Positions 2,194 through 49,821 of a stretch of 64,000 nucleotides of DNA are shown here, piece by piece. The number at the start of each line of letters is the position of its first letter. The stretch's first letter is position 1. The translations under genes and the position numbers were made by a program. The notes beneath the pieces were generated by a model that made no database searches, was not told the origin of the DNA, and saw only the letters and a program-made list of their open reading frames with translations. Location: the IMG/VR virus record IMGVR_UViG_3300030090_007211, positions 62,001 to 126,000 of that record. One strand, written 5' to 3'. The DNA is from a virus.

Positions 2194-2841
2194 TTATTTT
2201 ATCAATTTAGAAAGTTTTTTAATTTCACCTTCAGAAAGACTAATTACGTTACCATTTTTCTTAAAAGTAATTTTTCTACCTTCAGCAAAATGAGTACCTT
2301 CTTCGTCTCGGTCTTCATGATCTTCATCATAACCCATATCTTTCTTAAGAGCGTCTAAATGTCTTTCGATTTCTCTTACTCTATCAGCAGGTGCCATTTC
2401 TTCTTCATGTTCTAATTCTTCTTCCTCTTTATGGTCATGACCTTCATCATCTCCATAGTTATAAGTTTCTTCACCTTCAGAATCCTCAAAAATTTCATCT
2501 TTATCGAATTTTTCAAGACCTTCTTCTGATTCAGGTGCCCCAGCTTCATCAGATGCTCCCGTATCACCAGTTCCAATAACATCGTCTTCATTAACTACGT
2601 CACCATGATCTTCTTCATCTTTTTTAAGTGCTTCCGCTGATTCAGGTGCATCTACACCTTCAACATCTTCTTTTTCATCGATGTATTCACCTTCCTTAAT
2701 TTCTTTTTCTTTTAATGCTCTAGCTTCTGCCATTTTTTGAGCATTTTCTATTTGAGTCATTGCCTCTTCACCTTCTGCAATTAACTCCAAACCCATAAGT
2801 CTTCTCATGGCATTTGTTTCTTTTAATTGTTGTTTTTTCAT
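2194..2841 (-). CDS. Acidic LxE-tagged protein, 215 aa
   Basis: The N-terminus MKKQQLKETNAMRRLMGLELIAE ends in I-A-E at residues 21-23, an LxE tag. The middle (residues 25-165) is extremely acidic low-complexity sequence rich in E, D and H. The last 28 residues, including FKKNGNVISLSEGEIKKL, repeat a motif found twice in the adjacent gene (2848-3243) and resemble the xITESQFKKI tag type, so a tag-like helix is present at both ends. Strong negative charge is typical of scaffolding or DNA-mimicking internal proteins, but no function can be assigned. Ends at a clear terminator. Confidence 0.8.
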   Translation of the reverse strand: MKKQQLKETNAMRRLMGLELIAEGEEAMTQIENAQKMAEARALKEKEIKEGEYIDEKEDVEGVDAPESAEALKKDEEDHGDVVNEDDVIGTGDTGASDEAGAPESEEGLEKFDKDEIFEDSEGEETYNYGDDEGHDHKEEEELEHEEEMAPADRVREIERHLDALKKDMGYDEDHEDRDEEGTHFAEGRKITFKKNGNVISLSEGEIKKLSKLIK

Positions 2842-2847
2842 AACTTT

Positions 2848-3243
2848 CTATTTTAAGTCTTTTGATAATTGTTTTGCCTTTTCACCCTCTATTTTGTCCT
2901 CAAAGTCTTCAATTTGTTTTTCTAAGAATTCTTCGATTTTATGTAAAGTAGCAATTGATTCTAAATTATACTTAGTGGATTTTAACATATTACTCAAGGT
3001 ACTAAGTTTAGCGATTATAGAGCCCACTTTTACTTTTTTGTCTTCCGCTCTACGAGATTCTCTATCTTCAGTTAAAAATTGATTGATTTTATGTTTATTT
3101 ACAATCTTTTTAATTTCAGATTCTTTTAATGAAATTACTTCACCATCTTTTTTAAACTTAGTTACTTCTTTTTTATTCTGTAGGATTTTTTTTATTTCAC
3201 CTTCAGTTAAAGTAATTGTTTTTCCATTTTTTCTAATTTTCAT
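2848..3243 (-). CDS. LxE-tagged helical protein with duplicated tag motif, 131 aa
   Basis: Residues 1-20 (KNGKTITLTEGEIKKIL) and 29-46 (KKDGEVISLKESEIKKIV) are two copies of the same tag motif. The sequence then reaches NQFLTE|D near residue 57, an [L]-x-E site. The remainder is a predicted charged alpha-helical region (DKIEGEKAKQLSKDL). Candidate late box 18 bases upstream; next gene downstream starts 7 bases on. Inferred packaged internal protein; function unknown. Confidence 0.75.
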   Translation of the reverse strand: MKIRKNGKTITLTEGEIKKILQNKKEVTKFKKDGEVISLKESEIKKIVNKHKINQFLTEDRESRRAEDKKVKVGSIIAKLSTLSNMLKSTKYNLESIATLHKIEEFLEKQIEDFEDKIEGEKAKQLSKDLK

Positions 3244-3260
3244 TTTATTAGTTTTTTTTA

Positions 3261-3268
3261 TATAAATA
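3261..3268 (-). promoter_or_regulatory. Candidate late promoter box (TATTTATA)
   Basis: Perfect minus-strand TATTTATA, 18 bases before the ATG at 3243. Confidence 0.6.
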
Positions 3269-3289
3269 TATCATTTTAAATAAAAATTC

Positions 3290-4750
3290 TTATTTAGTGG
3301 TTTTATCTCTTTTTCTCTTTTTACCTTTTCTACCAATCTTAAACCATTTAAACACTTGTTTTATTTTAGATTCATCTCCTTGTGTCATAACTTTAACAAC
3401 ATTTTCACATGCTGGGAAATCTGCTAGGGTTTTAATTTCACCAAAAGTATTAGGTGTTTTTACAATAACTTCTTCCTTCATATTATTAAGGGTAGGTAAA
3501 GTAATAGTTATTTTCCCCACACCTCTATGGCAATCAGAACTAGGATTCCATTTACCTGCCCCTTTGTTAACACATTTAGCACTAATAACCATTTTTCCTT
3601 CATGTTTCCCCACAGTATCTGCATTAAAGAATTCATTATTAACACCATCAATACTTAATAAAAAAGTATTTCTTCTCCCCATTTCGTAGGTACCACCTTT
3701 TTTAGTTTTTTTGGCTTTTTGGTTAGATTTTATAATTTCTGCATCATCATATTTGTCTTTCCAAGGAGATTTATTATTAAGACTTGCATAATTTACTAAA
3801 TCTCCATTTCTATTTTCTCTTTTAAGTTGGTACCCATTTGCAAATACTTCGTAAACTGCGTGATCACAATTATGATCACCTTTATCATATATTACCTCAA
3901 TCACTGAATTATTAAAACACTCGTATAATACTTCTGTCTGTTCATCATCATTAGTGTCATCATCATTAGTGTCATCATCATTAGTGTCATCATCATTAGT
4001 ATTATCGTCATTAGTGTCATCATCATTGGTATTATCATCATTAGTGTCATCATCTTGCGTTTGATCTAAAATAGGGTCATAACAAAGAGTGATAATAATA
4101 TTAACAATTTGACCTGGTTTAAAAGTTTCACCACTAGGAATCTTCCAACCAGTAGTATTTACATCATTAGTGCCGCCAGTATCGATAACAAATCCTTCTG
4201 CTTTATTTAAAGTATCTTGTAATACCCCTTCTTTAAATTTAACATTAATAGTAGATAACCCTTCTTTTCCACCAAGTTGTGCTGCAACTCCTTTAGCTCT
4301 ATTTTTCGCCAATTCTTTATTCTTAGTGTATTCGGGAGAGTTTTTATCTTTTGTATATTTTTTAGCTTCCGGTGCTGTGGCATTAAATGGTGTTTTTCTA
4401 TCATTTTTTAAATCAGGAACTACTGAATATTTACGCCAAAAATTACTAGCACCCCCCATTACTTTAAATTCTGTTACATATACTAAATTTTCTTTAACTT
4501 TAGAAGATAAAGTAACATCATTTTTAATGGTACTTTTTACTTTTTCAATAAATCCTTTAAAAGAGTTGGATTTCTCTGCATTTTGTATGGGGAACGTCCC
4601 TGTATAACTTATAGTTTTACAGACAGGTTTCTTCTCAACTTTAGTTTCTTCTTGTTCTCTAATAATCGGATTTTTATATTGTCCATTTTTATAAGACATT
4701 AAACCCTGCATTCTTTGAATCTCCTCAATTAAGGTTTGTTTCTTTTTCAT
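3290..4750 (-). CDS. LxE-tagged protein with Asp/Asn/Thr repeat, OmpA-like segment, 486 aa
   Basis: The N-terminus KKKQTLIEEIQRMQGLMSY runs to NPIIRE|QEE (I-R-E near residue 37), a variant LxE tag. Residues about 110-165, with ASNFWRKY and ELAKNRAKGVAAQL, resemble the C-terminal helix region of OmpA-type peptidoglycan-binding domains (weak). Residues about 230-268 are a DDDTN pentapeptide repeat encoded by a 15-bp tandem repeat. The C-terminal half contains several cysteines and ends in a lysine/arginine-rich tail. A structural or cell-wall-contacting virion protein is plausible; function not established. Confidence 0.75.
   Translation of the reverse strand: MKKKQTLIEEIQRMQGLMSYKNGQYKNPIIREQEETKVEKKPVCKTISYTGTFPIQNAEKSNSFKGFIEKVKSTIKNDVTLSSKVKENLVYVTEFKVMGGASNFWRKYSVVPDLKNDRKTPFNATAPEAKKYTKDKNSPEYTKNKELAKNRAKGVAAQLGGKEGLSTINVKFKEGVLQDTLNKAEGFVIDTGGTNDVNTTGWKIPSGETFKPGQIVNIIITLCYDPILDQTQDDDTNDDNTNDDDTNDDNTNDDDTNDDDTNDDDTNDDEQTEVLYECFNNSVIEVIYDKGDHNCDHAVYEVFANGYQLKRENRNGDLVNYASLNNKSPWKDKYDDAEIIKSNQKAKKTKKGGTYEMGRRNTFLLSIDGVNNEFFNADTVGKHEGKMVISAKCVNKGAGKWNPSSDCHRGVGKITITLPTLNNMKEEVIVKTPNTFGEIKTLADFPACENVVKVMTQGDESKIKQVFKWFKIGRKGKKRKRDKTTK
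3942..4056. repeat. 15-bp in-frame tandem repeat
   Basis: About seven and a half copies of a 15-bp unit (tcatcatcattagtg and close variants) inside the gene 3290-4750. It encodes the acidic D/N/T linker and is a likely site of copy-number slippage. Confidence 0.9.
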
Positions 4751-4805: not shown

Positions 4806-4837
4806 TTTGGTAAATTGCGTTTTTTATTGTATATTTG
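4806..4837 (+). promoter_or_regulatory. Bacteroidota-type promoter
   Basis: TTTG at 4806-4809, 20-base spacer, TATATTTG at 4830-4837. Drives the DUF2927-like gene whose ATG is 16 bases beyond the box. Confidence 0.75.
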
Positions 4838-4852
4838 TATAAATCAAACACT

Positions 4853-5455
4853 ATGAAAAAGTTAATTACCATATTATTAGTATTCTTAAATGTAGGAATT
4901 TTCGCACAAATAAATGATTCTATTGTTAATGCGTATTATGACACTATTGTTCATTATACTGAATTTTCTAATAATAGATGGGAAAAACAAACATATGATG
5001 ATAATATTAAATTATATGTAACAGGAGATAAAGAAGATTATTTAATGGAGGAATTAAGCATCATCATTAATGATTTAAATGAATTAATTTACCCATTAAC
5101 TATCACTATTACTTATGATTCACTGGAACATAATATGTTACTGTTTATGGGGGAGCGCAAAGATTTTAGAAAAATTTGTAATGAGGTTGATAGAATTGAT
5201 TATAAGATACGTGGGTATGGTGTCACTTATACTTTATGGGGAACCACAATAACTAAGTCTAAATGTTTTGTAGAAACTAAAGGTAGTAGTCAAAAATTCA
5301 AAAAACATACATTAAGAGAAGAAATAACCCAATGTTTAGGTTTCCATAATGATACTCAACAATATGAAAATAGTATTTTTTATCAAGGTTATTCTATAAC
5401 TAATGAATTTTCAGAATTAGATAAAGCAATTATTAGAAAACATTATAGTAATTAG
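4853..5455 (+). CDS. Secreted DUF2927-like protein
   Basis: 200 residues. The start is ATG 4853: an upstream in-frame TTG lies inside the promoter -7 box and is not usable. The signal peptide MKKLITILLVFLNVGIFAQ is cleaved after AQ. The C-terminal part (TLREEITQCLGFHND, then NSIFYQGYS and LDKAIIRKHY) matches the DUF2927 pattern, a family thought related to zinc peptidases but lacking a clear HExxH here. Monocistronic, with its own promoter. Role unknown; it would act in the periplasm or outside the host cell. Confidence 0.7.
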   Translation: MKKLITILLVFLNVGIFAQINDSIVNAYYDTIVHYTEFSNNRWEKQTYDDNIKLYVTGDKEDYLMEELSIIINDLNELIYPLTITITYDSLEHNMLLFMGERKDFRKICNEVDRIDYKIRGYGVTYTLWGTTITKSKCFVETKGSSQKFKKHTLREEITQCLGFHNDTQQYENSIFYQGYSITNEFSELDKAIIRKHYSN

Positions 5456-7830: not shown

Positions 7831-8145
7831 TTAATCTTTTAAAGTAATATTGTATTTTGCAAAACTACCTTCAGTAACTTGTTCTAAAGGGGATTCTCCC
7901 TCACCTTCAGCACCATCACCAAAATCCTCTTGTTCTTCAACAACATCATTAACTTCTTCACCAGTACCTTCCTCTTCTACTTCTTCCGCTTCAGTAGTTT
8001 CAGTAATTTCTTCTTCTTGAATAGTTAATCCTCCGTTATTCGCAAACCCTAATGAAAAACCTGCATGATTTTCTTCTATGATTCCAAGATTTTTCTTATT
8101 AGCCTCTTGAATAGCTTGTCTCTTTAATTTTCCTAATCTTCCCAT
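7831..8145 (-). CDS. LxE-tagged acidic protein, 104 aa
   Basis: Tag MGRLGKLKRQAIQEANKK followed by LGIIEE, close to the tags of four other genes here. Residues 40-90 are almost entirely E, T, V and G. Cotranscribed with the peptidoglycan-binding protein upstream (15-base gap) and ended by a terminator. Probably a packaged filler or scaffold-like protein; function unknown. Confidence 0.75.
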   Translation of the reverse strand: MGRLGKLKRQAIQEANKKNLGIIEENHAGFSLGFANNGGLTIQEEEITETTEAEEVEEEGTGEEVNDVVEEQEDFGDGAEGEGESPLEQVTEGSFAKYNITLKD

Positions 8146-8160: not shown

Positions 8161-9039
8161 TTATTTTGTTTTATTTTTTACCCAATCGAAATAAAGTTTT
8201 TCATTCCTAGTGAATATTGAACAATTATTTTTAACACAATTGTCTTCGAATTTCTTCTTTGCCCAATATTCTGGACCACCTCCCGCAACTTGAGCGCCAC
8301 CCCATACATATTTAGGGCATCCTGCACATTTACCTTTACGTTTGTCAGGGAAAGTAATTGGTGGAAGTCCTTTAATTTTTTTAATACAATTTAAAAATTG
8401 TTCCCATTTATTATTGGTACTAATCAGACCAGGATATTCAAACGAAACATAACGAATACATTTAACAATGGATCCACATTGTTTATCACTTACTTTATCT
8501 ACAATGTCTACTATTTCAATATCGTCTATTATATCACCAGCATTAGGTAGATCACCAATAGGTTCACCTACACCTCTCTTTTGATCTTTTTTTATGTCAT
8601 CACATTGACATTTTTTACACATTCCTGAATCTGCAGCATTAATAGTAAATAAATCTGTGTTTCTTAATACCTCACACATTTTATTTAAGGTATCTGGACC
8701 AACTATTCCATCTACACTTAATTTATATTTACTTTGGAATTCTTTTACTGCATCTTTAGTATGGTTACGAAATTTACCATCACAATATTGCCATTTCTGA
8801 CTACAATTATCATTCATCCCCCCACCTTCGTATTTGGGATTAAAATCATTATTTCCTAATACAAATTGTATGAATTTTACTATGTCTCCTGATGAACCAT
8901 TTTTTGCGTGTTTAATATTACATTTAATTAAACACCAGTCTCTATCATTTTTCCCTATGATTCCTGTTACAACCTCGTTAAGGACTCTCTTATTAGCCTC
9001 TTCGATTAATTGTCTTTTAATTTTTTCTATTCTTCCCAC
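8161..9039 (-). CDS. LxE-tagged peptidoglycan-binding protein
   Basis: The likely start is GTG 9039: translation from it gives VGRIEKIKRQLIEEANKRVLNE, matching the tag of the neighbours exactly, whereas the longer frame would cross the promoter box. After L-N-E comes a cysteine-rich segment and a PG_binding_1-type domain at roughly residues 45-125 (AVKEFQSKYKLSVDGIVGPDTL). The C-terminal 150 residues have many cysteines (CAGCPKYVWGG) and no recognised catalytic motif. Likely a virion protein contacting the cell wall. Confidence 0.75.
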   Translation of the reverse strand: MGRIEKIKRQLIEEANKRVLNEVVTGIIGKNDRDWCLIKCNIKHAKNGSSGDIVKFIQFVLGNNDFNPKYEGGGMNDNCSQKWQYCDGKFRNHTKDAVKEFQSKYKLSVDGIVGPDTLNKMCEVLRNTDLFTINAADSGMCKKCQCDDIKKDQKRGVGEPIGDLPNAGDIIDDIEIVDIVDKVSDKQCGSIVKCIRYVSFEYPGLISTNNKWEQFLNCIKKIKGLPPITFPDKRKGKCAGCPKYVWGGAQVAGGGPEYWAKKKFEDNCVKNNCSIFTRNEKLYFDWVKNKTK

Positions 9040-9133: not shown

Positions 9134-9508
9134 TCACCATGGCATTACATCAGCATCCCAGTTTACCACTTGTCTTCCATAAGTAATGATATCCATTTGT
9201 ATTTTATCCTGTAAGGCACTATAATAATTTTTCCACACATAAGGAAGCTCTTCTCTTATTACCCCATACCTCTCATAACAATACCTATCAAATAGATGAT
9301 TTATAATAGTCTCTTCAGTGGCATGGGGAAGTGTTAATTTAACTTCTTTTAATAGCGACCTAAGATTACAATTAACAAAAGGAAATTTTATTAATACTGT
9401 CCCCCCATAAATCCCTTTACACATGAAACTCATCTCAACCTCCTTATCTATAGGAGTATCCTCAATGAGCCACTCAACAACCTTATCCAAAAACTCTTTA
9501 TTCATCAC
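9134..9508 (-). CDS. Single YGL-module protein, 124 aa
   Basis: Begins with the module helix MNKEFLDKVVEWLIEDTPID, has a central strand LIKFPFVNCNL, and ends with RYGVIREELPYVWKNYYSAL. No tag and no LxE site. Overlaps the next YGL gene upstream by four bases (ATGA). Function unknown. Confidence 0.8.
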   Translation of the reverse strand: MMNKEFLDKVVEWLIEDTPIDKEVEMSFMCKGIYGGTVLIKFPFVNCNLRSLLKEVKLTLPHATEETIINHLFDRYCYERYGVIREELPYVWKNYYSALQDKIQMDIITYGRQVVNWDADVMPW

Positions 9509-10582: not shown

Positions 10583-10888
10583 TTAATTTGCTAATTTTTT
10601 CAGTTTGTCGTAAACTATAGTCTTGTATACGTCTACAAGGTCATACATTTCATGTTCAGCCACACCATATAATTTGTTTACATAATATGTTAAATCATTT
10701 CGTATAACTGCGTTACCATGTTCCAAAGTACCTACATAGTAAATGTCTTCACTATCTAGAAAAGGATAAATCAAACCATACGCACCATATTCGTACCTAT
10801 CATATACCTTATTACTTAAAGGGACAATTTTAGTGTGTGATGCCAGATGTTTAGCAACCTTTAAAATATATTTTTCTTTTTTATTCAT
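10583..10888 (-). CDS. Single YGL-module protein, 101 aa
   Basis: MNKKEKYILKVAKHLASHT is the module's first helix, LIYPFL its strand, and LYGVAEHEMYDLVDVYKTIV its terminal motif. Starts with a one-base overlap (TAATG) on the tagged gene upstream. Function unknown. Confidence 0.8.
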   Translation of the reverse strand: MNKKEKYILKVAKHLASHTKIVPLSNKVYDRYEYGAYGLIYPFLDSEDIYYVGTLEHGNAVIRNDLTYYVNKLYGVAEHEMYDLVDVYKTIVYDKLKKLAN

Positions 10889-11319
10889 TAATGTGCTGAG
10901 TTAAATGATAAAGGAATGGTTACCCCTGCACTAATAACACTACTAGGGATAGTAGGGGTGTTATGATGAGAATCATGATGGCCCAATGATCCTTCCAGAT
11001 CTAATTTAATATCATGATGTTTACCAAGATGGGGAAACTGCAATGAAAGGTGTTTAGAATGAGGATTATAATGTGCGTGTACATTGTGTGCCAAAGAATC
11101 CATAATACTCTTTTCATCCGAATGTATATCTAAAGATAAAGAATGTTTTAATTTCTCATCTTTATGGATCTTCTCTATTATCTCGTCCATATCATGATTA
11201 CTTAAATGTAATATATCTGATTTTAACTTTCCTATTCTTTCTTCAGAATCAGATTGTTCTAATAATCTCTTATTAGCGTCTTCTATTAATAACCTTTTAA
11301 TTTTTGCAATCCTTCCCAT
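10888..11319 (-). CDS. LxE-tagged His-rich protein, 143 aa
   Basis: Tag MGRIAKIKRLLIEDANKRLLE|QSDSEE (L-L-E). The middle is rich in histidine (LSNHDMDEIIEKIH, HYNPHSKHL, HHDSHHNTP), suggesting metal binding, though no enzyme signature is visible. Candidate late box 17 bases upstream. Coupled to the YGL gene downstream. Function unknown. Confidence 0.75.
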   Translation of the reverse strand: MGRIAKIKRLLIEDANKRLLEQSDSEERIGKLKSDILHLSNHDMDEIIEKIHKDEKLKHSLSLDIHSDEKSIMDSLAHNVHAHYNPHSKHLSLQFPHLGKHHDIKLDLEGSLGHHDSHHNTPTIPSSVISAGVTIPLSFNSAH

Positions 11320-15271: not shown

Positions 15272-15574
15272 CTATTTACACATTTTATCTATCTTCATTT
15301 TTCCTACACCTTTATAACCACTTTTATAAATAACATTTTGTTTTAGACATGCACAAATCTCTTCTTTAGTGGTATCTATTTCCTTAACATTTTTCATGTT
15401 AACAATTATGTTATTCCAAAACTCATCCCAACTTTTTGTTTTACCATTATTATCTCCTATGGTATTAATGTCGTTATAATATTCTTTTGATGTATCGCAT
15501 TGATGTGTATCTTCTGTGATAACCCTTTTTACTATACGTTGAATGTCTGATTCTTTTAATTTAATTACTTTCAT
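15272..15574 (-). CDS. LxE-tagged protein, 100 aa
   Basis: Tag MKVIKLKESDIQRIVKRVITE|D (I-T-E at residues 19-21), of the xITESQFKKI type. The mature part has five cysteines and the segment WDEFWNNIIVNMKNVKEID. Preceded by the 53-bp repeat at 15591-15643 and followed by a terminator. Function unknown. Confidence 0.75.
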   Translation of the reverse strand: MKVIKLKESDIQRIVKRVITEDTHQCDTSKEYYNDINTIGDNNGKTKSWDEFWNNIIVNMKNVKEIDTTKEEICACLKQNVIYKSGYKGVGKMKIDKMCK

Positions 15575-16317: not shown

Positions 16318-17157
16318 TTATTCAGTTTTTAATACAACAAACCAATAGTTACCAACTTTAACAATATCCGACATTGCCTCATATCCATACTTATTTTTCA
16401 TATCGGTTAATCTTTGATTTAAATTATCTTCGGAGGGATCAAATATACCACTAATACCAGTAGTTGTATCACCATCTTTAGAAATAGTAATAGTATTCCC
16501 ATCTATAGTTGCATTACCATAATTATCTTTAGGTAACGCTAATAACTGATCTCTCGCATCTCCCAAATCATTAAATGTTATGGTAATGGGTTTTGATTTG
16601 TTACCACCACAGTGAGATTGATAATTAGGGTTTTTCCATTGGGCAAAATATTCTACTAACCCTTCAGGTGTTTTTTTCATATCACTAATATCTAAACTTG
16701 TACCTTTAGTTGGTAGGTGACCTACCTCATCTTTAAGGTGGTCTAACTTATATCCTTCACCATGACCCCAACCTCCTCTACGATCAAAAGAAGTGTATGC
16801 ATCACATGCATTGTTAACCTGAATAAAAGGTATGTCTACTTTAAATTCTACTTGTCCGGTATTATTATCTATTCTATTCCCTAATGTTTTATCTATAATA
16901 GTCTCTAATTTAATCCCATCTAAATCCACTATTGTCCATTGTCCCTTATTATATAACTTTTTTAATTCGTCCCCAACTATAGTAGTGATAGTATTAATAA
17001 ATCTATGTGTGTTATCATTAGGGTTTTGGGAAGGACCAATATAGGTACCACTCACACCATTACTACTAATATTGATGGAGGGAGAAGATTGTTCACCTAA
17101 TAATCTTTTATTGGCTTCCTCTATTAACTGTCTTTTTAATTTCCCTAGTCTACTCAT
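16318..17157 (-). CDS. LxE-tagged protein, 279 aa
   Basis: The tag MSRLGKLKRQLIEEANKRLLGE|Q is nearly identical to that of 17172-17678, yet the mature sequences are unrelated. The mature part is beta-rich (INISSNGVSGTYIGPS, VDLDGIKLETIIDK, ITITFNDLGDARDQLLALP). No catalytic motif recognised. Candidate packaged protein of unknown function. Confidence 0.8.
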   Translation of the reverse strand: MSRLGKLKRQLIEEANKRLLGEQSSPSINISSNGVSGTYIGPSQNPNDNTHRFINTITTIVGDELKKLYNKGQWTIVDLDGIKLETIIDKTLGNRIDNNTGQVEFKVDIPFIQVNNACDAYTSFDRRGGWGHGEGYKLDHLKDEVGHLPTKGTSLDISDMKKTPEGLVEYFAQWKNPNYQSHCGGNKSKPITITFNDLGDARDQLLALPKDNYGNATIDGNTITISKDGDTTTGISGIFDPSEDNLNQRLTDMKNKYGYEAMSDIVKVGNYWFVVLKTE

Positions 17158-18585: not shown

Positions 18586-19263
18586 TTAAAATTTTCTACG
18601 TTTTTTCTGTAAATCATCCATCATATCATGTGGTTGATCCCACCAACCATCACCTTTCTTTCTGAACTCATCTTCACTTTTTCTATTACCCTCTTTATCC
18701 ACATCCACTAATTTGATTCTTCTATGTTGTCCACCTGAAAAATCTGAATTAACTGCAATATCATTTATTTTTTGTTTATAGTCTGCAAACAATTTTTGTA
18801 TATTCTTTTTAAATTCTACTGTAAGTTTTTCCGCTTCTTCACTATATGTTTTTACACTATTAATTGCTTCTTCTATATCATATAGTTCATAATCACCTTT
18901 ATCTCTATCAGTATGTGCCAATTTTTCAGTTTTGGGATTATAATAAGGTGTATAGTATCCTTCTTTTTGTTCTTCACTATGATTTAATAAATCATATGAT
19001 ATATAATCAGGATGAGAGTCATCACCAAAAGAACCATGCCCCCTACTTTCTATGTCTCTTTCACTAACACCTGCGGAAAAATTCCACGCTTCAGGATTCA
19101 ACCGAAAGTATATACGTTTTTTTATTTCTGGGATATATGTACTCCAACCATATTTAGATTTTGCAATATGTAGTTCTGTATCTGGTGATCTATTAATCTC
19201 TGGCGATGTTAAATCATCAGGATTAAATTCTTCTTTAAGTATCTTTTGTATAATATGTTTCAT
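18586..19263 (-). CDS. LxE-tagged protein, 225 aa
   Basis: Short tag MKHIIQKILKE|EFNP (L-K-E at residues 9-11). Mature part: KSKYGWSTYIPEIKKRIYFRLNPEAW, an acidic/aromatic middle, and a helical C-terminus. Two bases from the NlpC/P60 gene upstream, so coexpressed with the cell-wall enzymes. Function unknown. Confidence 0.75.
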   Translation of the reverse strand: MKHIIQKILKEEFNPDDLTSPEINRSPDTELHIAKSKYGWSTYIPEIKKRIYFRLNPEAWNFSAGVSERDIESRGHGSFGDDSHPDYISYDLLNHSEEQKEGYYTPYYNPKTEKLAHTDRDKGDYELYDIEEAINSVKTYSEEAEKLTVEFKKNIQKLFADYKQKINDIAVNSDFSGGQHRRIKLVDVDKEGNRKSEDEFRKKGDGWWDQPHDMMDDLQKKRRKF

Positions 19264-19265
19264 TT

Positions 19266-20249
19266 TTAACTCATTGCATGATGATGGTGCATAAAATATT
19301 CGTAAGGGATATAACCGATATATTTTCTACGATAATAATTATTATTAAACACATCTTTTATTATGTTAACTCCTTTAGAACCTGAGGCATGAATCATATC
19401 TACTTTATTACCATCTCTATTATGGACAAATCCTGTGTGTCTTGCGTTTTTACCTCTACCGGATCTCCCAAACAATAAAATATCTCCTTTTTTGGTTTCG
19501 CCCCAATTCTTTTTTCCTTTTCTAAATCCTTTTTCTCTCAATAGACTTCCCGTAGTATCACGACCAGGAGAATCTAATTCCTCAACGTGCCTAAATGTCC
19601 AATCTACTAACCCACTACAATCTCCACCTTCACCATCAAACTCGTCTCCCCACTTATATGGTTCCCCTAATCTTTCTTCTGCAGTTTTTACAATTTTATC
19701 CCCAATAGTTAAATCTACTTCTTCATGATCATAAACACCATCACTTTCTTCATCATCATATTCAATTTCATGGTGCTCTACCTCTTCCTCATCACTTACT
19801 ACTCCTTCTTCTACTGAATTAATTAATTCTTCTACCCCTTTATCATGAAACTTAGCTTCTTTAGTGATTTCCTCATATAATTTGGTATAGGTGTGTGGTC
19901 CTACAATTTTATCCCATTCCATTGAATCTTTAAATACGTCTTTTTGAAATTTCAGAACCGCATCAGCAGTATCAGGACCATATACCCCATCTATTCCATG
20001 TGGTCCAACATCATATCCTAATGCAACCAACATTTTTTGAACTCTTTTTACATGACTTTTTTCATTAGATTTATATCTTTTTAAATATCTACCGTCAATA
20101 TCTCTTTGCCATTCATCCGCATTTTTACTTAAACTTTGATTGGCTGCGGTGGCAACACCACCTATCGTCTTACCTAATTTACTAATAATACTTTCATCTT
20201 CACGTAAGATTATTTTCTTAAATTGGCTTTCCGTAATTTTAATTAACAT
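19266..20249 (-). CDS. LxE-tagged NlpC/P60 endopeptidase with peptidoglycan-binding domain
   Basis: Three parts. Tag MLIKITESQFKKIILRE|D (residues 1-18). PG_binding_1-type domain, about 62-128 (VKRVQKMLVALGYD…GVYGPDTADAVLKFQ). NlpC/P60 domain, about 185-318, with Cys211 (GGDCSGLVDW), His271 (RHTGFVHNRDG) and His287 as catalytic triad candidates. Such enzymes cut stem-peptide bonds in peptidoglycan. A very acidic linker joins the domains. The C-terminus MHHHHAMS is natural here. Likely a virion-associated lysin used at entry, or an endolysin. Confidence 0.85.
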   Translation of the reverse strand: MLIKITESQFKKIILREDESIISKLGKTIGGVATAANQSLSKNADEWQRDIDGRYLKRYKSNEKSHVKRVQKMLVALGYDVGPHGIDGVYGPDTADAVLKFQKDVFKDSMEWDKIVGPHTYTKLYEEITKEAKFHDKGVEELINSVEEGVVSDEEEVEHHEIEYDDEESDGVYDHEEVDLTIGDKIVKTAEERLGEPYKWGDEFDGEGGDCSGLVDWTFRHVEELDSPGRDTTGSLLREKGFRKGKKNWGETKKGDILLFGRSGRGKNARHTGFVHNRDGNKVDMIHASGSKGVNIIKDVFNNNYYRRKYIGYIPYEYFMHHHHAMS

Positions 20250-20965: not shown

Positions 20966-22470
20966 GTAATTTGAACACCGAATTCTTTAGTTAACGAAGA
21001 AGGGGATGGACAAAATTCATCTTGTCCCACACCACCTAATTTTATAAAGTAATCTCCTTCTTTTCCAGGTTCTACTTTTACTAAATAATCTTTAGGGTTT
21101 TCAGACATTAAAAATACTTGTGTCCCTATGTTTGCCATTGCTTGTACTTTTGGGTTTTGAATGAATTGTGGATCCACATTAAAACATCCAGCACTTAAAT
21201 CATATTTGCTTGTCATACTTTCTACTGCCTCAATATATTCTGGTGGAATATTTCCGTATTGTAAATCCTTTTTTAATAATTTACTTAATTCTGCATCTGC
21301 TACCAATCTATTTTTGACAGGTACTATTGCATGTATTGCAGTACCTAAATCCACTCCATCAAGTGTACCTAATCCCAATGTGTTAGGTATACCTTTTTTA
21401 CCCCTATAACCTTTTTTATAATATTTACTATTGATTTTATAAATACCTGGTGCTTGATATCGTTTATGTTTTTTGGCGAGAATAGAATAATTATATACTT
21501 TTCCTTTAGTATATTCTGGTTTATCTGAAGCAACCGAGTTACTTGAAACTATATTCCCTTTTACACAGGTTTTTATAAATTTTTTATTCTTTAATCGAAT
21601 TGCTTTCCATTCCCCTCCTGATAATTGACACCATTCTGCACGTGTAAATACTACATCTTGTTGTTTATCTGCACTAGCAACCGATTGGGAATAATCAATT
21701 AATTTATAGTCTTTAGTAAATGCTAACACTAAATTTAAACGTGGATCCACAATAAAAAATGGTTTACCATTATTTGCGTTTCTCACTTGTATATAAGCTA
21801 ATTCCTTATTAATTCTATCTGCGCCTGGTACAGTATCTTTTACTGCAAATCCTCTCTCAATAGCATCTTTTTTATCTTTAACATAATCCCAATAAGTTGG
21901 ATTATTATAACGATTAAATATAGAATATAAATTTTCACCATCTACAATATAATTTAATGCGGTTAAAATATATTTATTATCATGTTTACCCTTCGGATCT
22001 AATTTCAATTTCTCCGCAATTTTTTTATATTCATTATTAACAAATTGTCTAAATTTATTACCTTCTATTGTATTTTTAAAAGGTGAAACAACAATTCGTT
22101 CATCACCAGAAATGTTTTTATAATTTCTTAATAAGTTAGCTCGTCTACCACCAATTGGTGCGGTTTTCTGATTTGATTGGTGTTTAGTATCTACCTCCAT
22201 AGAAGTTAGGGTTTCAGGCCCCACTATCCCATCAATCTTTAATTTATTTTTACTCTGGTAATCTCTAACTGCCTTATAGGTTTTATCTCCATATTTACCA
22301 TCTACACCATCTTTATTAGGACCAGAAGTCCCCAAATCATACCCATTATTTTTTAAAATTTGTTGTATTTCTTTTACTTTTTCTCCTTTACTACCTCTTT
22401 TATAAAGAGTTGTTGTCTGCTCTTTAAGTATTAATTTTTTAAATTGACTTTCTGTTACTAATATTTTCAT
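20962..22470 (-). CDS. LxE-tagged L,D-transpeptidase-like cell-wall enzyme
   Basis: 502 residues. Tag MKILVTESQFKKLILKE|Q. PG_binding_1 domain, about 22-92 (VKEIQQILKNNGYDLG…GIVGPETL). Then a long middle and a YkuD-like C-terminal part. PFFIVDPRLNLVLAFTKDYK (about 237-256) resembles the family's first strand, and H380 (TAIHAI) with C429 (LSAGCFNVD) resemble its catalytic His and Cys. The usual SxGCxR motif is altered, so activity is uncertain. Substrate would be peptidoglycan cross-links. Confidence 0.65.
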   Translation of the reverse strand: MKILVTESQFKKLILKEQTTTLYKRGSKGEKVKEIQQILKNNGYDLGTSGPNKDGVDGKYGDKTYKAVRDYQSKNKLKIDGIVGPETLTSMEVDTKHQSNQKTAPIGGRRANLLRNYKNISGDERIVVSPFKNTIEGNKFRQFVNNEYKKIAEKLKLDPKGKHDNKYILTALNYIVDGENLYSIFNRYNNPTYWDYVKDKKDAIERGFAVKDTVPGADRINKELAYIQVRNANNGKPFFIVDPRLNLVLAFTKDYKLIDYSQSVASADKQQDVVFTRAEWCQLSGGEWKAIRLKNKKFIKTCVKGNIVSSNSVASDKPEYTKGKVYNYSILAKKHKRYQAPGIYKINSKYYKKGYRGKKGIPNTLGLGTLDGVDLGTAIHAIVPVKNRLVADAELSKLLKKDLQYGNIPPEYIEAVESMTSKYDLSAGCFNVDPQFIQNPKVQAMANIGTQVFLMSENPKDYLVKVEPGKEGDYFIKLGGVGQDEFCPSPSSLTKEFGVQIT

Positions 22471-33105: not shown

Positions 33106-33603
33106 CTATTTTTTAGATTTCTTCTTTTTCTTACTAGTTCGTTTATTTAATTGACAATCAGAAATCGTTTCATAAACACAATTTGTGCTATCATATTTCA
33201 AGTTACCACCTTTTTGATCATCATCACATTGATGTTTGAATTTACCATTCTTACATTTTTTACAACACATTGGTGATCTTCCTAATTTAGCTTCGTAAGA
33301 TCCTGGTTTAGGATATCGATTAGGGTCATCAGGATCATATGGATCATATGGATCAGGGTTATCTTCTTCATATGGATCCGGATAATCATCATCGTCTTGT
33401 GATAATACTAACGCTGTTGGTGTAACATATGCCCCCGCACTGGCAGTGCTAGTTCCCCCTCTTGCGATATTGTTAGATGTGGTAGGATTAGAAGGAGGAG
33501 TAGGTGTTTGTTCTTGTAAAGACTCTTTTTTACTCTCTTCTTCTATTACTTGTTGTATAATACGATTTAATTGACTTTCAGTTAATTTTATTGTCCTTCC
33601 CAT
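33106..33603 (-). CDS. LxE-tagged low-complexity protein, 165 aa
   Basis: Tag MGRTIKLTESQLNRIIQQVIEE|E (I-E-E), with a further L-Q-E|Q a few residues on. Then a Thr/Pro/Ser stretch, a DPYDPYDPDDPN repeat (about 78-95), a cysteine cluster (CCKKCKNGKFKHQC) and a poly-Lys tail. Likely packaged; the basic tail may contact DNA. Late box 16 bases upstream. Confidence 0.75.
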   Translation of the reverse strand: MGRTIKLTESQLNRIIQQVIEEESKKESLQEQTPTPPSNPTTSNNIARGGTSTASAGAYVTPTALVLSQDDDDYPDPYEEDNPDPYDPYDPDDPNRYPKPGSYEAKLGRSPMCCKKCKNGKFKHQCDDDQKGGNLKYDSTNCVYETISDCQLNKRTSKKKKKSKK

Positions 33604-38669: not shown

Positions 38670-38771
38670 TTAACTATTAAAAATAAAGTACAACAATCCC
38701 CACCATAGAAGTTTATAAATAAGAAAATAAAACCAATACTTCTTACTTAACTCCCATAATCTTTTATTTAT
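38670..38771 (-). CDS. Possible ATA-initiated membrane peptide, 33 aa
   Basis: The frame reads [ATA]NKRLWELSKKYWFYFLIYK… up to a TAA. It has a good membrane helix and no ATG, GTG or TTG at its beginning. The ATA codon overlaps the stop of the upstream gene as ATAA, just where ATG would be in an ATGA coupling. Either a rare ATA start or a mutated start codon. Confidence 0.3.
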   Translation of the reverse strand: MNKRLWELSKKYWFYFLIYKLLWWGLLYFIFNS

Positions 38772-43078: not shown

Positions 43079-45163
43079 ATGGAAGAGGATAAACAAGAAA
43101 AATATCTTAATCGTGTAATTCAAGAGTTGGTGGATAATACTTATGCAGATGTTAGAGATCAAAAAATATGGCATCCATATGATGAACATTATTCTCGTCA
43201 TCTAATTGGTGGTGCTCCATTGCAATTTTTTGATTTTGTTCATGACTCTTATGGTATTTTTCCGGAAGAAGTGGAATCATTATGGTCACAATATAAACAT
43301 AGGATTAAAAAGGAAAATGGATGGGTACAAATTTATCCATTCGATAGTCGTGGTGAAGCAGTTAGATTTGCAATGAATGAAGATTACGATAAGTTTAAAA
43401 AAATAGATAATCCTAAACAACATAAATTTTATCATAAAATCGCAGATAAAATAGTAGACTTAATTGAGGTGAGAGAAACAAGAGACTATGGGTATGATGA
43501 AATGGTAGAAGAAATATTTTTAACGGATTTATTAAATCCTAAATTTCCACGTCAAGGAATGAGTTTACCCCCTAATATTAATATTCCAGATTATGATACA
43601 TTCCACGACAGAATATTACGTAGGGTATCAGATTTTTTCCCTATGTTGGAAAACTATTGGTTTATAGATGATATATTTACCCAACTATTTATTCTAACTA
43701 AATTTGTATTCCCTAAAATATGGAATAAATTTTATAAAGGAGAAGATCAACCAGAAGAATCTACAGATTATGGTGAACATGTGTTAGATTATGAAGAAAA
43801 GAAGAAAGAAATAAATGAATCTACTTCTTTAATAGACGTAGTAGTTAAAGATATGATTAAAAATACTACTACTGAGGTAAGTAAATTTAGTACTCGTACT
43901 GTCTATGTCCCTACTAATAATGCAATTTATAATTTTGGTTTACTCAATAATTTAGAGCGTTGCCCTAACTATCTTTACAATTACATACAAGATACTTATG
44001 GGTTAACTCCCCAAGAAATTGAGGAGGTGTGGATACATTATAAAGACGCAATTATGAATATGTTAGAGGATACGGATAGTAATAATCCCTTTGCTATTAG
44101 AGAAGCAGAAGGAAACATCATTCCTCACTTAACTGAAAAAGAGAAGGAAGACCTTTATTCCTTTGCGTGGCATCCCGACCCAAAGAAAGGAAAATTTTAC
44201 GAAGCTATATTACGGGATGTGATAGGTGCATCTGCAATAAGTTGGGATGGAGTAATAACTGTGGGGGATCCTAATCTAGCTCCCGGTAGAGGCTTGGAAT
44301 TTCATAATATTTCTCTCGCTTATGATGTCAATCCCTTCTTCCGCTATTTAAAAGATACTTATGCGTTATTAGATAACGAGATCCACCCTATTTGGTCCCG
44401 CTGGGAACATATTATGGAAGAGAAGATAAAGAAATGGTTAGAGGAGAAAAATATTTCGTGGAATGATGGTCATTATGCTATTGGTGTTGACTATACTGAT
44501 GACCATATCTGGGATGCTAATAATTTACCCCCACCTGACCACCCAGACTGGGTGGAGGAATCGACTATTAAAGTAGATGATGAAACGGGAGAGTTTTATG
44601 GTTGGAAATCTAACGAACAAATAGATAAAGAATATAGTGAAAAATCCAAATTACAAAAAGGTTACTTACAATGGGCAGTAGAAGAAATAAGAGATCAAAT
44701 AGAAAGTGATCCCATATCCAAAAATCCTTATCGATATGGGTCTGCAGATAGTTTACCACCAGCTTGGATACGCATACGTTGGCAAAATTTAGGTTTAGAC
44801 GCAGATGAGATGGATTGGGCGTGGAGACAAGTGTTAAACCATTTTAAACCTATCCCTTTAACTGAAAATTTTCCACGTTTAAATAAAAATAAATTTAATT
44901 ATATATTTAAAGATTTACATAATAAAACAGTAAAATTACATGGGAGTAATAAACCTCTATGTACAGGAGGTATGTCACCCACATTATCCGATGGTAAAGC
45001 AGTACAAATTTATTTCCCCTCTTCCGATTTTCCTTATTATGTAGAACTAGATGAAAAAGTAAGATCACCTTTTTATCATTATTTAGAAACCACTTACAAT
45101 CTAAGTGAAGACGAAATAGATGAAGTATGGGAGAAATATAGACGATATATCTGTCACACATAA
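43079..45163 (+). CDS. Six-module YGL protein
   Basis: 694 residues. Modules end at about 77 (YGIFPEEVESLWSQYKHRI), 220, 326 (YGLTPQEIEEVWIHYKDAI), 450 (YALLDNEIHPIWSRWEHIM), 588 (LGLDADEMDWAWRQV) and 691 (YNLSEDEIDEVWEKYRRYI). Sites of the [L/I]-x-E type fall between modules: I245-N-E247|S, I340-R-E342|A, L351-T-E353|K and L594-T-E596|N. The largest intact tandem member and the only one on the plus strand apart from the ParB fusion. Function unknown. Confidence 0.85.
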   Translation: MEEDKQEKYLNRVIQELVDNTYADVRDQKIWHPYDEHYSRHLIGGAPLQFFDFVHDSYGIFPEEVESLWSQYKHRIKKENGWVQIYPFDSRGEAVRFAMNEDYDKFKKIDNPKQHKFYHKIADKIVDLIEVRETRDYGYDEMVEEIFLTDLLNPKFPRQGMSLPPNINIPDYDTFHDRILRRVSDFFPMLENYWFIDDIFTQLFILTKFVFPKIWNKFYKGEDQPEESTDYGEHVLDYEEKKKEINESTSLIDVVVKDMIKNTTTEVSKFSTRTVYVPTNNAIYNFGLLNNLERCPNYLYNYIQDTYGLTPQEIEEVWIHYKDAIMNMLEDTDSNNPFAIREAEGNIIPHLTEKEKEDLYSFAWHPDPKKGKFYEAILRDVIGASAISWDGVITVGDPNLAPGRGLEFHNISLAYDVNPFFRYLKDTYALLDNEIHPIWSRWEHIMEEKIKKWLEEKNISWNDGHYAIGVDYTDDHIWDANNLPPPDHPDWVEESTIKVDDETGEFYGWKSNEQIDKEYSEKSKLQKGYLQWAVEEIRDQIESDPISKNPYRYGSADSLPPAWIRIRWQNLGLDADEMDWAWRQVLNHFKPIPLTENFPRLNKNKFNYIFKDLHNKTVKLHGSNKPLCTGGMSPTLSDGKAVQIYFPSSDFPYYVELDEKVRSPFYHYLETTYNLSEDEIDEVWEKYRRYICHT

Positions 45164-45668: not shown

Positions 45669-46061
45669 ATGAAAACAGAAAATTTTTATACGTATGTGGT
45701 CGAATCTTTATTTAACTCCACACATTTAATTGAAAAAGGAACTCGACCCTCTGAAATTGTTATTGGGGGTAATTTCCACACGTCACCTACCAACTATAAT
45801 GAAAATTACTCACTATCCTTTGATTTTATTAACGGTGAAGTGCCTGATCTTACTTATTCCTTAGCACTATTACAACGATATCATACCTCTAGCATGAGTT
45901 TCATATGTTTCCATTCTCAATTTCCTAAGTATGTTATGGATAACTTCGGAGTACTAGAAGACGAAGTAGAATTTATATGGGAAAGATTAAGGAAAAGAAT
46001 AATTGCTACTATTCTCCAAGATCCGGCAAAGTGCCCAATGCTGGGATCGCTCTCCGCCTAA
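45669..46061 (+). CDS. Single YGL-module protein, 130 aa
   Basis: MKTENFYTYVVESLFNSTHLIEKG… with strand LSFDFING and end NFGVLEDEVEFIWERLRKRI. Its last 53 bases overlap the convergent tagged gene 46009-46230. Function unknown. Confidence 0.75.
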   Translation: MKTENFYTYVVESLFNSTHLIEKGTRPSEIVIGGNFHTSPTNYNENYSLSFDFINGEVPDLTYSLALLQRYHTSSMSFICFHSQFPKYVMDNFGVLEDEVEFIWERLRKRIIATILQDPAKCPMLGSLSA

Positions 46062-46230
46062 CACCACCATATCCACCAGCAGAACCACCTCTTACTACCA
46101 CATCATAAATACGTGTTAACATTTCTCTATCTTCTGCAGTAAACGATACAGGTTTATTGTCTATTTCTTCTGCCCAAGATTGTTCGGCAATTACTTCTTT
46201 AATTATATTTCTGATTTCTTTTTTTTGCAT
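46009..46230 (-). CDS. LxE-tagged small protein, 73 aa
   Basis: Tag MQKKEIRNIIKEVIAE|Q (I-A-E at residues 14-16), then SWAEEIDNKPVSFTAEDREML and a Gly/Arg-rich end (GGSAGGYGGVRRRA). A perfect late box upstream supports it despite the 53-base overlap. Function unknown. Confidence 0.7.
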   Translation of the reverse strand: MQKKEIRNIIKEVIAEQSWAEEIDNKPVSFTAEDREMLTRIYDVVVRGGSAGGYGGVRRRAIPALGTLPDLGE

Positions 46231-48443: not shown

Positions 48444-48979
48444 AAGTACTAGCTTTACCATTCATATTACTATTCTTAAATTTTAATTTAATATCACAAC
48501 ATTTAATGTCACCCCCTAATGCCTCGAGAAAAGAAGTGAAACTTATTAAAAGTATTTTAAAAGATTACGTAAATGATGAAGAAGCTTTACTAATATATAA
48601 TCCTTATGCCCCACTATACTTTGGGATATATGGTATAACCTACCAATATACTCCTAATATGTGTTTGATTAGTATCTCTGCCTCCATTGCAGATAGAGAT
48701 AAACGATACTACGTTATATTACATGAACTGGGACATGTATTAGATATTTTCTATGGTGATCTAAGTGAATACCCTCCAATGTGGAAAGGTAAAAGAATGG
48801 ATCACACATTAGATTGGAATGAAAGACCTTGGGAAATACATGCAGATGAATGGGCAAATAGATTATGGAAAAAATATTTACCAGGAGATCCACCACCAAA
48901 TGATTTATTTGATAATGTTAGTTTCCCTCATGATTGTATTTTCCAAAGATGGGGTTCCATCAAATTTAAAAGTGAGTAA
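48440..48979 (+). CDS. Secreted zinc metalloprotease
   Basis: 179 residues. Signal peptide MKVLALPFILLFLNFNLISQ. HExxH at 95-99 (ILHELGHVLD) and a downstream EIHADEWA (132-139) that could supply the third ligand, as in gluzincins. About 160 residues mature, so a compact enzyme. Coupled to the ParB fusion gene. Target unknown; likely periplasmic or surface. Confidence 0.75.
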   Translation: MKVLALPFILLFLNFNLISQHLMSPPNASRKEVKLIKSILKDYVNDEEALLIYNPYAPLYFGIYGITYQYTPNMCLISISASIADRDKRYYVILHELGHVLDIFYGDLSEYPPMWKGKRMDHTLDWNERPWEIHADEWANRLWKKYLPGDPPPNDLFDNVSFPHDCIFQRWGSIKFKSE

Positions 48980-49165
48980 TTAAGTATTAATATCCCCTCT
49001 ATGTGCCACCCTATAATTATTGGGATTTAAATAGATAAGTTGTTTATGAACTTTCCTAATATAAAGAAAAACTTTATCTGCTTCTTTATCATACACTAAA
49101 GTTTTATCTTTAAAAATATCATCTATCTTATAATATGCTGGTTTTGCAGGAAATGGGGACATCAT
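48980..49165 (-). CDS. Hypothetical protein, 61 aa
   Basis: MMSPFPAKPAYYKIDDIFKDKTLVYDKEADKVFLYIRKVH… small beta pattern. ATGA overlap with the membrane gene upstream. Function unknown. Confidence 0.6.
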   Translation of the reverse strand: MMSPFPAKPAYYKIDDIFKDKTLVYDKEADKVFLYIRKVHKQLIYLNPNNYRVAHRGDINT

Positions 49166-49332
49166 AAATCATTTTGTTTATCTTTAATCCCTTGTATGAA
49201 TCCCTTAGTAAAATTAAAAAGAAACCCAATAATCAACGGCAATAATACTACACCAAAAGATAAATGGGGATATAAAGTAAGTTTAAAAATTAATAAAACT
49301 AATACGATACTTAAATCTATTCGTATATCCAT
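49162..49332 (-). CDS. Small membrane protein, 56 aa
   Basis: Start ATG 49332 (MDIRIDLSIVLVLLIFKL) because the longer frame runs through the -7 box. Two hydrophobic segments separated by a Pro/His turn. Nearly leaderless. Function unknown. Confidence 0.6.
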   Translation of the reverse strand: MDIRIDLSIVLVLLIFKLTLYPHLSFGVVLLPLIIGFLFNFTKGFIQGIKDKQNDL

Positions 49333-49336
49333 ATTA

Positions 49337-49368
49337 CAAAGATACACAAAATAAATGACTAAAACAAA
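49337..49368 (-). promoter_or_regulatory. Bacteroidota-type promoter
   Basis: Minus-strand TTTG (49365-49368), 20-base spacer, TATCTTTG (49337-49344); ATG 4 bases on. Confidence 0.75.
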
Positions 49369-49821
49369 CTAAAGAGATTTAATATCAATAAGGGTGGTAC
49401 CTTTTCCTTTATTTTGAAGAGTAATTTCTTGTTCGTGGGGATAATAAATATTATTATGTAAAGTATTAAAAATATCAATTTGATCCTTATTAACACCCAC
49501 AGTTATCAACACTACTTTATCTCCCGCATCACTATATATTGATCCTTTATTATAGTGATTATATAATAGTTCTTTTTTATTGGGGGAATAATGATCACCT
49601 AGGGATTCTGTGTCTATTTCCTCTCCCTCATGTAAATATAATAAACGATAGAGGGTAATAGTCTCAGGTAGAGTATTTAACCACTCTAAGAGTCTATTTA
49701 AGTCTTCCATACCCCACTCATTATCTAACCCCATTTCTTCATAGGCATTAGACAATTGAGTTAGTTCGTCACCAGTTAAAGTAACTTCTTCGTTTAATAA
49801 TTTTATAAATGATATCATCAC
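49369..49821 (-). CDS. LxE-tagged ADP-ribosyltransferase-like protein
   Basis: 150 residues. Tag MMISFIKLLNE|E (L9-N-E11). The rest has the order of an R-S-E ADP-ribosyltransferase: R59 (TLYRLLYL), S79 (DHYSPNKKEL), then VVLITVGV and E130-Q-E132 (YYPHEQEITL), an ExE motif. T4 packages the ADP-ribosyltransferase Alt with a gp21-cleaved N-terminus, so tag and enzyme type fit each other. The fold call is by eye. Possible substrate: host RNA polymerase or translation proteins. Confidence 0.6.
   Translation of the reverse strand: MMISFIKLLNEEVTLTGDELTQLSNAYEEMGLDNEWGMEDLNRLLEWLNTLPETITLYRLLYLHEGEEIDTESLGDHYSPNKKELLYNHYNKGSIYSDAGDKVVLITVGVNKDQIDIFNTLHNNIYYPHEQEITLQNKGKGTTLIDIKSL

What the first reader, a model, noticed from the sequence alone, without database searches (positions are those of the whole stretch)
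2194..49821. Family of N-terminal tags ending in [L/I]-x-E on about 15 unrelated proteins
Seen directly: the genes at 2194, 2848, 3290, 7831, 8161, 10888, 15272, 16318, 17172, 18586, 19266, 20962, 33106, 46009 and 49369 start with one of a few related amphipathic, basic peptides. Most end in LGE, LNE, LKE, LRE, IAE, ITE or IEE at residues 10-25. The proteins behind the tags are unrelated (wall enzymes, acidic proteins, an ADP-ribosyltransferase-like protein). Known: T4 internal proteins and Alt carry an N-terminal capsid-targeting peptide that prohead protease gp21 removes after [L/I]-x-E. Inference: a large phage of Bacteroidota packages many cargo proteins by this route.
Basis: partly seen in the sequence, partly recalled or inferred. 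Interest (0 to 1): 0.9.

Follow-up and report, generated by a model that had tools for sequence, protein, structure and literature searches.

The report
Head-packaging tags on phage cargo proteins
A large T4-type virus of bacteria puts one of several short, interchangeable 'address labels' at the front of at least 30 unrelated proteins, most likely so that they are loaded into the virus head, have the label clipped off by the head protease, and are injected into the next host.

Summary
The window is bases 62001-126000 of a 151,931-base virus record with a T4-type head module: terminase, portal, a gp21 (S77) protease 35% identical to T4 gp21, an acidic scaffold and gp23. Profiles built from the tags find 26 tagged genes in this record; a gene missed by the gene caller and about six short T4-like tags add to these. 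The same profiles find none in 598 ORFs of randomly chosen viral contigs, and about 6 in 5,318 internal windows.

The tags behave as cassettes. Genes 16318 and 17172 share 62/66 tag nucleotides, and the match ends at the predicted scissile Glu codon. One cargo family carries four different tags in relatives, each ending [LI]-x-E or close to it. The phage's own gp23 has [LIMV]-x-E, with invariant Glu and variable x, at T4's maturation position in 80 of 80 homologues. Large tagged contigs without the protease also lack portal and gp23, so they are fragments.

Best explanation: T4-style capsid targeting and gp21 clipping, greatly expanded. Packaging and cleavage are inferred. A Bacteroidota host is likely, not shown.

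The parts
17092..17157 (-). class A tag MSRLGKLKRQLIEEANKRLLGE of gene 16318-17157
   Evidence: HMM E 6e-19; 62/66 nt identical to the tag of 17172 and about 20 nt of shared leader, identity ends at the Glu codon
17613..17678 (-). class A tag MSRLGKLKRQLIEEANKRILGE of gene 17172-17678
   Evidence: HMM E 2e-17; cassette duplicate of 16318's tag
8071..8145 (-). class A tag of acidic protein gene 7831-8145
   Evidence: HMM E 7e-17
8974..9039 (-). class A tag (VGRIEKIKRQLIEEANKRVLNE, GTG start) of gene 8161; cargo has a PG_binding_1 domain
   Evidence: HMM E 2e-16; Pfam PF01471 6e-12; orthologue in G009 carries a different tag
11257..11319 (-). class A tag (MGRIAKIKRLLIEDANKRLLE) of gene 10888-11319
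   Evidence: HMM E 2e-15
15512..15574 (-). class B2 tag MKVIKLKESDIQRIVKRVITE of gene 15272-15574
   Evidence: HMM E 7e-14
33538..33603 (-). class B2 tag MGRTIKLTESQLNRIIQQVIEE of gene 33106-33603
   Evidence: HMM E 2e-11
3070..3243 (-). two tandem B2-like units at the start of gene 2848-3243
   Evidence: HMM E 0.007; read directly
2197..2274 (-). C-terminal tag-like unit (KITFKKNGNVISLSEGEIKKLSKLIK) of acidic protein gene 2194-2841
   Evidence: read directly; same unit as in 2848 and in G008 genes
2773..2841 (-). weak tag MKKQQLKETNAMRRLMGLELIAE of gene 2194-2841
   Evidence: not scored by the profiles; resembles class E and immuto 'RMQ.LAGIITE' tags by eye
4655..4750 (-). class E tag MKKKQTLIEEIQRMQGLMSYKNGQYKNPIIRE of gene 3290-4750
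   Evidence: HMM E 8e-26; the same leader on record gene 48040 with an unrelated body
20199..20249 (-). class B tag MLIKITESQFKKIILRE of gene 19266-20249; cargo NlpC/P60 plus PG_binding_1
   Evidence: HMM E 1e-7; Pfam 3e-10 and 5e-9
22420..22470 (-). class B tag MKILVTESQFKKLILKE of gene 20962-22470; cargo PG_binding_1
   Evidence: HMM E 4e-7; Pfam 9e-18
19231..19263 (-). class C tag MKHIIQKILKE of gene 18586-19263
   Evidence: HMM E 5e-9; tag and cargo both kept in the G008 orthologue
46183..46230 (-). class C/B2-like tag MQKKEIRNIIKEVIAE of gene 46009-46230
   Evidence: HMM only 0.05, but orthologues in G008 and L450 carry the class B tag MKIRITEKQYKEIISE directly before the same QSW cargo, 95% identical over 40 residues
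49789..49821 (-). short T4-like tag (M)MISFIKLLNE of gene 49369-49821, weakly ADP-ribosyltransferase-like cargo
   Evidence: fits the short pattern (0/598 random viral ORFs, matches T4 IPII/IPIII); orthologous domain carries B or C tags elsewhere; model pLDDT <50 over residues 1-11, ART folds top the PDB list only weakly

Best explanation
The tags are capsid-targeting propeptides of a T4-type phage. While the prohead is assembled, a short basic amphipathic N-terminal peptide docks each cargo protein onto the acidic scaffold core. The gp21-type protease inside the prohead then cuts after Glu in [LI]-x-E, removing the peptide, digesting the scaffold and maturing gp23. The freed cargo stays in the head with the DNA and is ejected into the next host. 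Several tag families (A, B, B2, C, E and a short T4-like form) act as interchangeable cassettes that recombination joins to new cargo genes. Shown: the tags, their modularity, the gp21 protease, the head module and the matching gp23 site. Inferred: docking on the scaffold, packaging, cleavage and ejection.
For: Protease present and T4-like. Head gene order terminase-portal-core genes-protease-acidic scaffold-gp23, as in T4's 20-67-68-21-22-23. gp23 homologues have invariant Glu, P3 L/I/M/V and variable P2 in 80/80 at the T4 maturation position; T4 itself reads FLTE|A there. Scaffold enriched for [LI]-x-E, 18 against 9.5 expected, P 0.006. 26 tags by profile, against about 6 hits in 5,318 internal windows. 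In loci selected by gp23, not by tag, 56 of 1,445 ORFs are tagged (without class H), against 0/598 in random viral contigs, P 4e-9. Tag-cargo swaps in several families. Cassette duplication ending at the Glu codon. Ten of ten tested tag-search contigs with gp23 also have the protease; the five large tagged contigs without the protease also lack gp23 and portal, and G039, which shares identical genes with one of them, has all three. A T4-like short tag form occurs in the same genome. Cargo types fit injected proteins: wall hydrolases, and in relatives an InPase/cREC polyvalent-type protein, Mom, sigma factor, nucleotidyltransferase. T4 mechanism: PMC9026906.
Against: No virion proteomics. Tag classes A, B, B2, C and E have no sequence similarity to T4's 10-residue targeting peptide beyond charge and the [LI]-x-E end. 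Some tags lack a clear site at their end (2848; the C-terminal copy in 2194). In class B the Glu sits at one of two neighbouring positions in only about 62% of sequences. Presence of S77 in tag-selected contigs against control contigs is not significant by itself, 12/45 against 2/26, P 0.07, because many contigs are fragments. Rhodothermus phage RM378 has a gp21 but none of these tags.
Confidence: 0.83

Rival explanations
1. The peptides are docking or anchoring helices for something other than the head, such as the membrane, a replication compartment or a host protein, and the [LI]-x-E ending reflects only helix composition.
For: They are basic amphipathic helices by sequence, and several cargos are wall enzymes that would also work at lysis.
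Against: The [LI]-x-E ending is at the tag-cargo boundary in unrelated tag classes and is kept when tags are swapped. The same signature is the conserved gp23 processing site. Tags are common in gp23-selected loci and absent from random viral contigs and from the parts examined of phi38:1 and crAss-like phi14:2.
Confidence: 0.1
2. Targeting without cleavage: the tags dock cargo in the core but most are not removed, and [LI]-x-E is incidental in many.
For: Some tags lack a good site. In T4 the targeting and processing residues are separable: an Asp at position 10 blocks processing but not targeting (PMC9026906).
Against: 94-96% of tagged N-termini hold a site, against 10-33% in controls. gp23 and scaffold of the same phage carry the same site.
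Confidence: 0.05
3. The tags are remnants of recent gene duplication or of mobile 5' gene segments with no shared function.
For: The 16318 and 17172 leaders are near-identical at the DNA level, untranslated leader included.
Against: Most tags are shared at the protein level only and keep hydrophobic, basic and [LI]-x-E positions while diverging. The same cargo keeps some tag, of any class, in different phages.
Confidence: 0.02

Closest known systems
T4 capsid targeting sequences of internal proteins IPI-III and Alt, removed by gp21 (PMC9026906)
   Same: Short N-terminal peptide on unrelated proteins; [LI]-x-E end; gp21-family protease; T4-type head module; the short tags here (MKFLDILNE, MIKFTQILEE) resemble T4's MKTYQEFIAE.
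   Different: About 33 tagged genes in one incomplete record instead of a handful; at least five tag families, mostly longer (11-32 residues) and unlike T4's; cassette exchange visible between genes and between phages; one C-terminal copy.
Phage P1 DarB N-terminal capsid targeting signal (PMC9024508)
   Same: The N-terminal 30 residues are enough to bring a foreign protein into the head; the cargo is thought to enter the cell during infection.
   Different: No sequence relationship was looked for; described for DarB, not as a multi-gene cassette family.
phiKZ / 201phi2-1 / SPN3US prohead protease substrates (PMC9026906, PMC10052503)
   Same: Many head proteins with N-terminal propeptides cut after Glu; at least 19 substrates each in phiKZ and 201phi2-1.
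   Different: The phiKZ motif is S/A-x-E and SPN3US propeptides are mostly long; here the motif is [LI]-x-E with short, related tags.
Polyvalent and virion-packaged effector proteins, MuF fusions (PMC5512222, PMC9503650)
   Same: Head-packaged effectors such as ARTs and other enzymatic domains.
   Different: There, domains are fused in one long chain or to head proteins; here single proteins carry a short, probably removable tag.

Membership tests
T4-type capsid targeting / gp21 processing system | gp21-family (Peptidase_S77) prohead protease in the same genome | tested here: met
   Pfam E 1e-25, PHROG 207 3e-42, 35% identity to T4 gp21, HP and GVSSRG blocks conserved
T4-type capsid targeting / gp21 processing system | T4-type head module with scaffold and gp23 | tested here: met
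   gp23 Pfam 4e-73, portal, terminase and acidic scaffold in T4 order; scaffold assigned by position and acidity only
T4-type capsid targeting / gp21 processing system | protease specificity [LI]-x-E | tested here: met
   indirect: gp23 site [LIMV]-x-E, Glu invariant in 80/80; scaffold enriched
T4-type capsid targeting / gp21 processing system | short N-terminal peptide ending in [LI]-x-E on several unrelated proteins | tested here: met
T4-type capsid targeting / gp21 processing system | sequence similarity of the tag to T4 IPII/IPIII CTS | tested here: inconclusive
   a pattern that fits T4 IPII/IPIII also fits about six short tags here and 0/598 random viral ORFs, but it was written with both in view; the other classes do not match
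T4-type capsid targeting / gp21 processing system | protein is in the mature virion, cut after the Glu | not testable with these tools
   needs N-terminal proteomics
T4-type capsid targeting / gp21 processing system | tag is sufficient to package a foreign protein | not testable with these tools
   needs a reporter fusion
phiKZ-type S/A-x-E processing | S/A-x-E at propeptide ends and in the major capsid protein | tested here: not met
   gp23 site is [LIMV]-x-E in 80/80

The most novel reading that the evidence does not exclude
Several unrelated tag families coexist because they address different docking sites or layers of the prohead core, so they form a small address code setting how much of each cargo is packaged and perhaps the order of ejection. 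The cassettes spread by recombination and turn the head of these T4-type phages into a general protein-delivery device.
Probability: 0.25. Interest if true: 0.88.

Novelty: new variant of a known kind. Interest (0 to 1): 0.74.

Why it matters
It would make the packaged, injected proteome of a large group of uncultured T4-type phages readable from sequence. Profiles of the tags nominate about 14-17 cargo proteins per 100 kb in this phage and its tag-rich relatives, most without any known family, as likely early-infection effectors. It also suggests natural tag cassettes for loading foreign proteins into phage heads outside the T4/E. coli system, and it would explain why many unrelated hypothetical proteins in viral metagenomes begin with LTESQ- or IIKKILKEE-like peptides.

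Tried and rejected
Direct tblastn of 23-24-residue tags in annotated phages gave no match at all, probably because such short queries are beyond that search. The S77 presence test on tag-selected contigs was blunted by fragments and by chance pattern matches (P 0.07). Five big tagged contigs without S77 first looked like a refutation; rejected because gp23 and portal are missing from them too, G009 and G044 end in genes that flank the head module in G000, and G032 shares identical genes with a contig that has all three. Class H 'tags' (MxKRIxISExEK) are partly helix-turn-helix-like N-termini in relatives and were left out of the counts used. The Hsp20 protein at record 44040 looks tagged but its start can be a normal Hsp20 N-terminus; the HesB/IscA-like start at window 38768-39091 resembles a tag, I think by chance. 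PHROG names 'DarB-like' and 'minor head' for the G004 tagged protein rest on a shared InPase domain. Host promoter and Shine-Dalgarno tests were uninformative. Literature searches found no description of such tags in Bacteroidota or cyanobacterial phages in the held library.

Full report
What the window is. The window is bases 62001-126000 of a 151,931-base IMG/VR virus record, G000. The record is probably incomplete: no tail-sheath or replication block was recognised, although not every gene was searched. All numbers are for what is present.

Checking the observation. The 15 ORFs are there and read as described. N-terminal 30-mers of 214 predicted genes were compared with each other, excluding pairs with homologous bodies: 54 genes reach a pairwise score of 40, against 8-14 for internal segments. 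Profiles for tag classes, iterated on N-termini of G000 and related contigs, find 26 tags in G000 with E<0.05, while 5,318 internal windows give about 6 hits in all. Thirteen additional tags lie outside the window, at record positions 32693, 34781, 35257, 38306, 48040, 52500, 54427, 56256, 57489, 58905, 60449, 148906 and 149376. A further tagged gene at L003:14992-15354 was missed by the gene caller, and short tags start the genes at 127833, 129083, 129958, 130923 and 141269. The seeds came from these genomes, so the tag counts in G000 are not independent of the profiles; the controls below are.

Tag anatomy. Class A is [GS]R(L/I)xK(L/I)KRxxIEEANKRLLGE. Class B is MKIxLTESQ[YF]KK(L/I)(L/I)xE. 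B2 is MKx(I/V)I+LTESDLxRIVKRVIxE. Class C is MKxIIxKILKEE. Class E is a longer leader with RMQxLM. The short form is MK(F/L)xxILxE. Mean net charge of the first 18 residues is +2.5, against -1.3 over residues 23-62. The end is [LI]-x-E in 25/26 G000 tags and 94% of 108 tags in seven other contigs, against 33% and 25% of untagged N-termini and 10% and 19% of internal windows. In B2 the Glu sits at one fixed offset in 76%, with a hydrophobic P3 in 80%. In class B it falls at either of two adjacent offsets, each two residues after a mostly hydrophobic position. Many tags hold a second, internal [LI]-x-E (LTE in LTESQ, LIE/IEE in class A); redundant sites are known in phiKZ propeptides (PMC9026906), but here this is only an observation.

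The protease and its site. G000 has Peptidase_S77 (E 1e-25), 35% identical to T4 gp21 over 170 residues, beside portal, terminase, an acidic scaffold-like protein and gp23 in T4-like order. In 80 gp23 sequences (G000, relatives, immuto, RM378) the residue at position 60 is always Glu, P3 is L/I/M/V, and P2 varies (N, T, S, C, A, M), just before a linker of variable length. T4 gp23 has FLTE|A at this place. So [LI]-x-E is written in the phage's own capsid protein, independently of the tags. The scaffold has 18 [LI]-x-E against 9.5 in shuffles (P 0.006).

Modularity. Genes 16318 and 17172 are identical at 62 of the first 66 nucleotides and over about 20 nucleotides of untranslated leader, and the identity collapses within one codon after GAA, the predicted P1 Glu. 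One cargo family (YMFF...QMRRQ) is preceded in relatives by MKIKLTEKQYKKIIKE, MKKIKLTEKDLMRIVKKTISE, MKQIIKLNETHLTKLIKKVLSE and MRNIEHKITRLLREE; in L104 the leader of the neighbouring DUF5824 gene is fused to it. The 46009 product has MQKKEIRNIIKEVIAE|QSW here and MKIRITEKQYKEIISE|QSW in two relatives, with the G008 cargo 95% identical over 40 residues. The 8161 and 49369 cargos also occur with other tag classes.

Distribution. Selected by gp23 only, 80 related loci hold 56 tagged ORFs of 1,445 (class H left out; 74 with it), spread over 38 loci. Random viral contigs hold 0/598 (P 4e-9), and the segments examined of phi38:1, crAss-like phi14:2 and T4 hold none of the long tags. G000, G008, G009 and G044 have about 14-17 tags per 100 kb, immuto about 4, RM378 none. 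In bacterial genome contigs the only contig with several real tags is a phage contig in a Prochlorococcus single-cell assembly. Tagged contigs G008, G009, G023, G032 and G044 lack S77 but also gp23 and portal. G009 and G044 end in genes that flank the head module in G000, and G032 shares identical genes with G039, which has all three. All ten tested contigs with gp23 have the protease; two of them (G030, G040) were brought in by chance matches to the pattern, not by a real tag.

Cargo. In G000: PG_binding_1, NlpC/P60, Hydrolase_2 (cell wall), DUF5824, DUF4314, most others unknown. In relatives: also glucosaminidase, tRNA nucleotidyltransferase, Mom, sigma-70, endonuclease VII, InPase with cREC. 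The 49369 product folds with mean pLDDT 82, with its first 11 residues below 50. The best PDB hit is ParT, an ADP-ribosyltransferase toxin (E 0.15, probability 0.82), and many ART folds follow, so 'ART-like' is a lead, not a result. T4 Alt is a packaged ART, and ARTs are enriched in myoviruses (PMC9503650).

Mechanism and standing. T4 IP propeptides of 10-19 residues target proteins to the core, and gp21 cuts after L/I-x-E (PMC9026906). The system here agrees with that in every defining feature that sequence could test, apart from the tag sequences themselves. Packaging, cleavage and ejection remain inference. What is new is scale (about 33 tagged genes), several unrelated tag families in one genome, and visible cassette exchange. 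I found no description of it in the held library.

Doubts. Some tags lack a clean site. Class H was contaminated. The short-tag pattern was written with T4 in view. The host phylum is inferred from distant cultured relatives (29-41% gp23 identity) and could be wrong for some relatives.

Noticed in passing
window 9134-9508, 10583-10888, 11400-11735, 12989-13282, 30461-30985, 43079-45163, 45669-46061: Seven genes share an N-terminal 'kYLnkV..L..dT'-like segment or homologous bodies; it looks like a small protein family, not a tag.
   Followed up: partly
L104 (IMGVR_UViG_3300009488_000837): The leader of a DUF5824 gene is fused in frame to the neighbouring YMFF cargo: a recombination product caught in the act, or an assembly artefact.
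   Followed up: partly
L316/L323, contigs QCKH01000009.1 and QCKH01000014.1: Contigs filed under Prochlorococcus single cell AG-409-L21 look like phage relatives of this record, one carrying four tags; either an infected cell or an attached virus.
   Followed up: partly
window 2194-2841 and 2848-3243: The tag-like unit K-[IF]-x-K-[ND]-G-x-x-I-x-L-[ST]-E-x-[DE]-[LI]-K-K occurs twice in tandem at the start of one protein and once at the C-terminus of its acidic neighbour; relatives use it as an ordinary N-terminal tag.
   Followed up: partly
window 22504-24235: An M23-like peptidase with an N-terminal membrane segment (by eye), followed by two paralogous methyltransferase-like genes (bodies homologous).
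   Followed up: no
record 127833-131825 and 141269-143572 (right of the window): Two blocks of adjacent genes with short T4-like leaders (MKFLDILNE, MIKFTQILEE, MKLFKLIKEE); two of the bodies have DnaJ-like zinc motifs.
   Followed up: partly
window 20306-20965, 4835-5455, 24712-25485: Proteins with lipoprotein or Sec-type signals, some ending in AQ/SQ, a style common in Bacteroidota (own knowledge); weak support for a Bacteroidota host.
   Followed up: no
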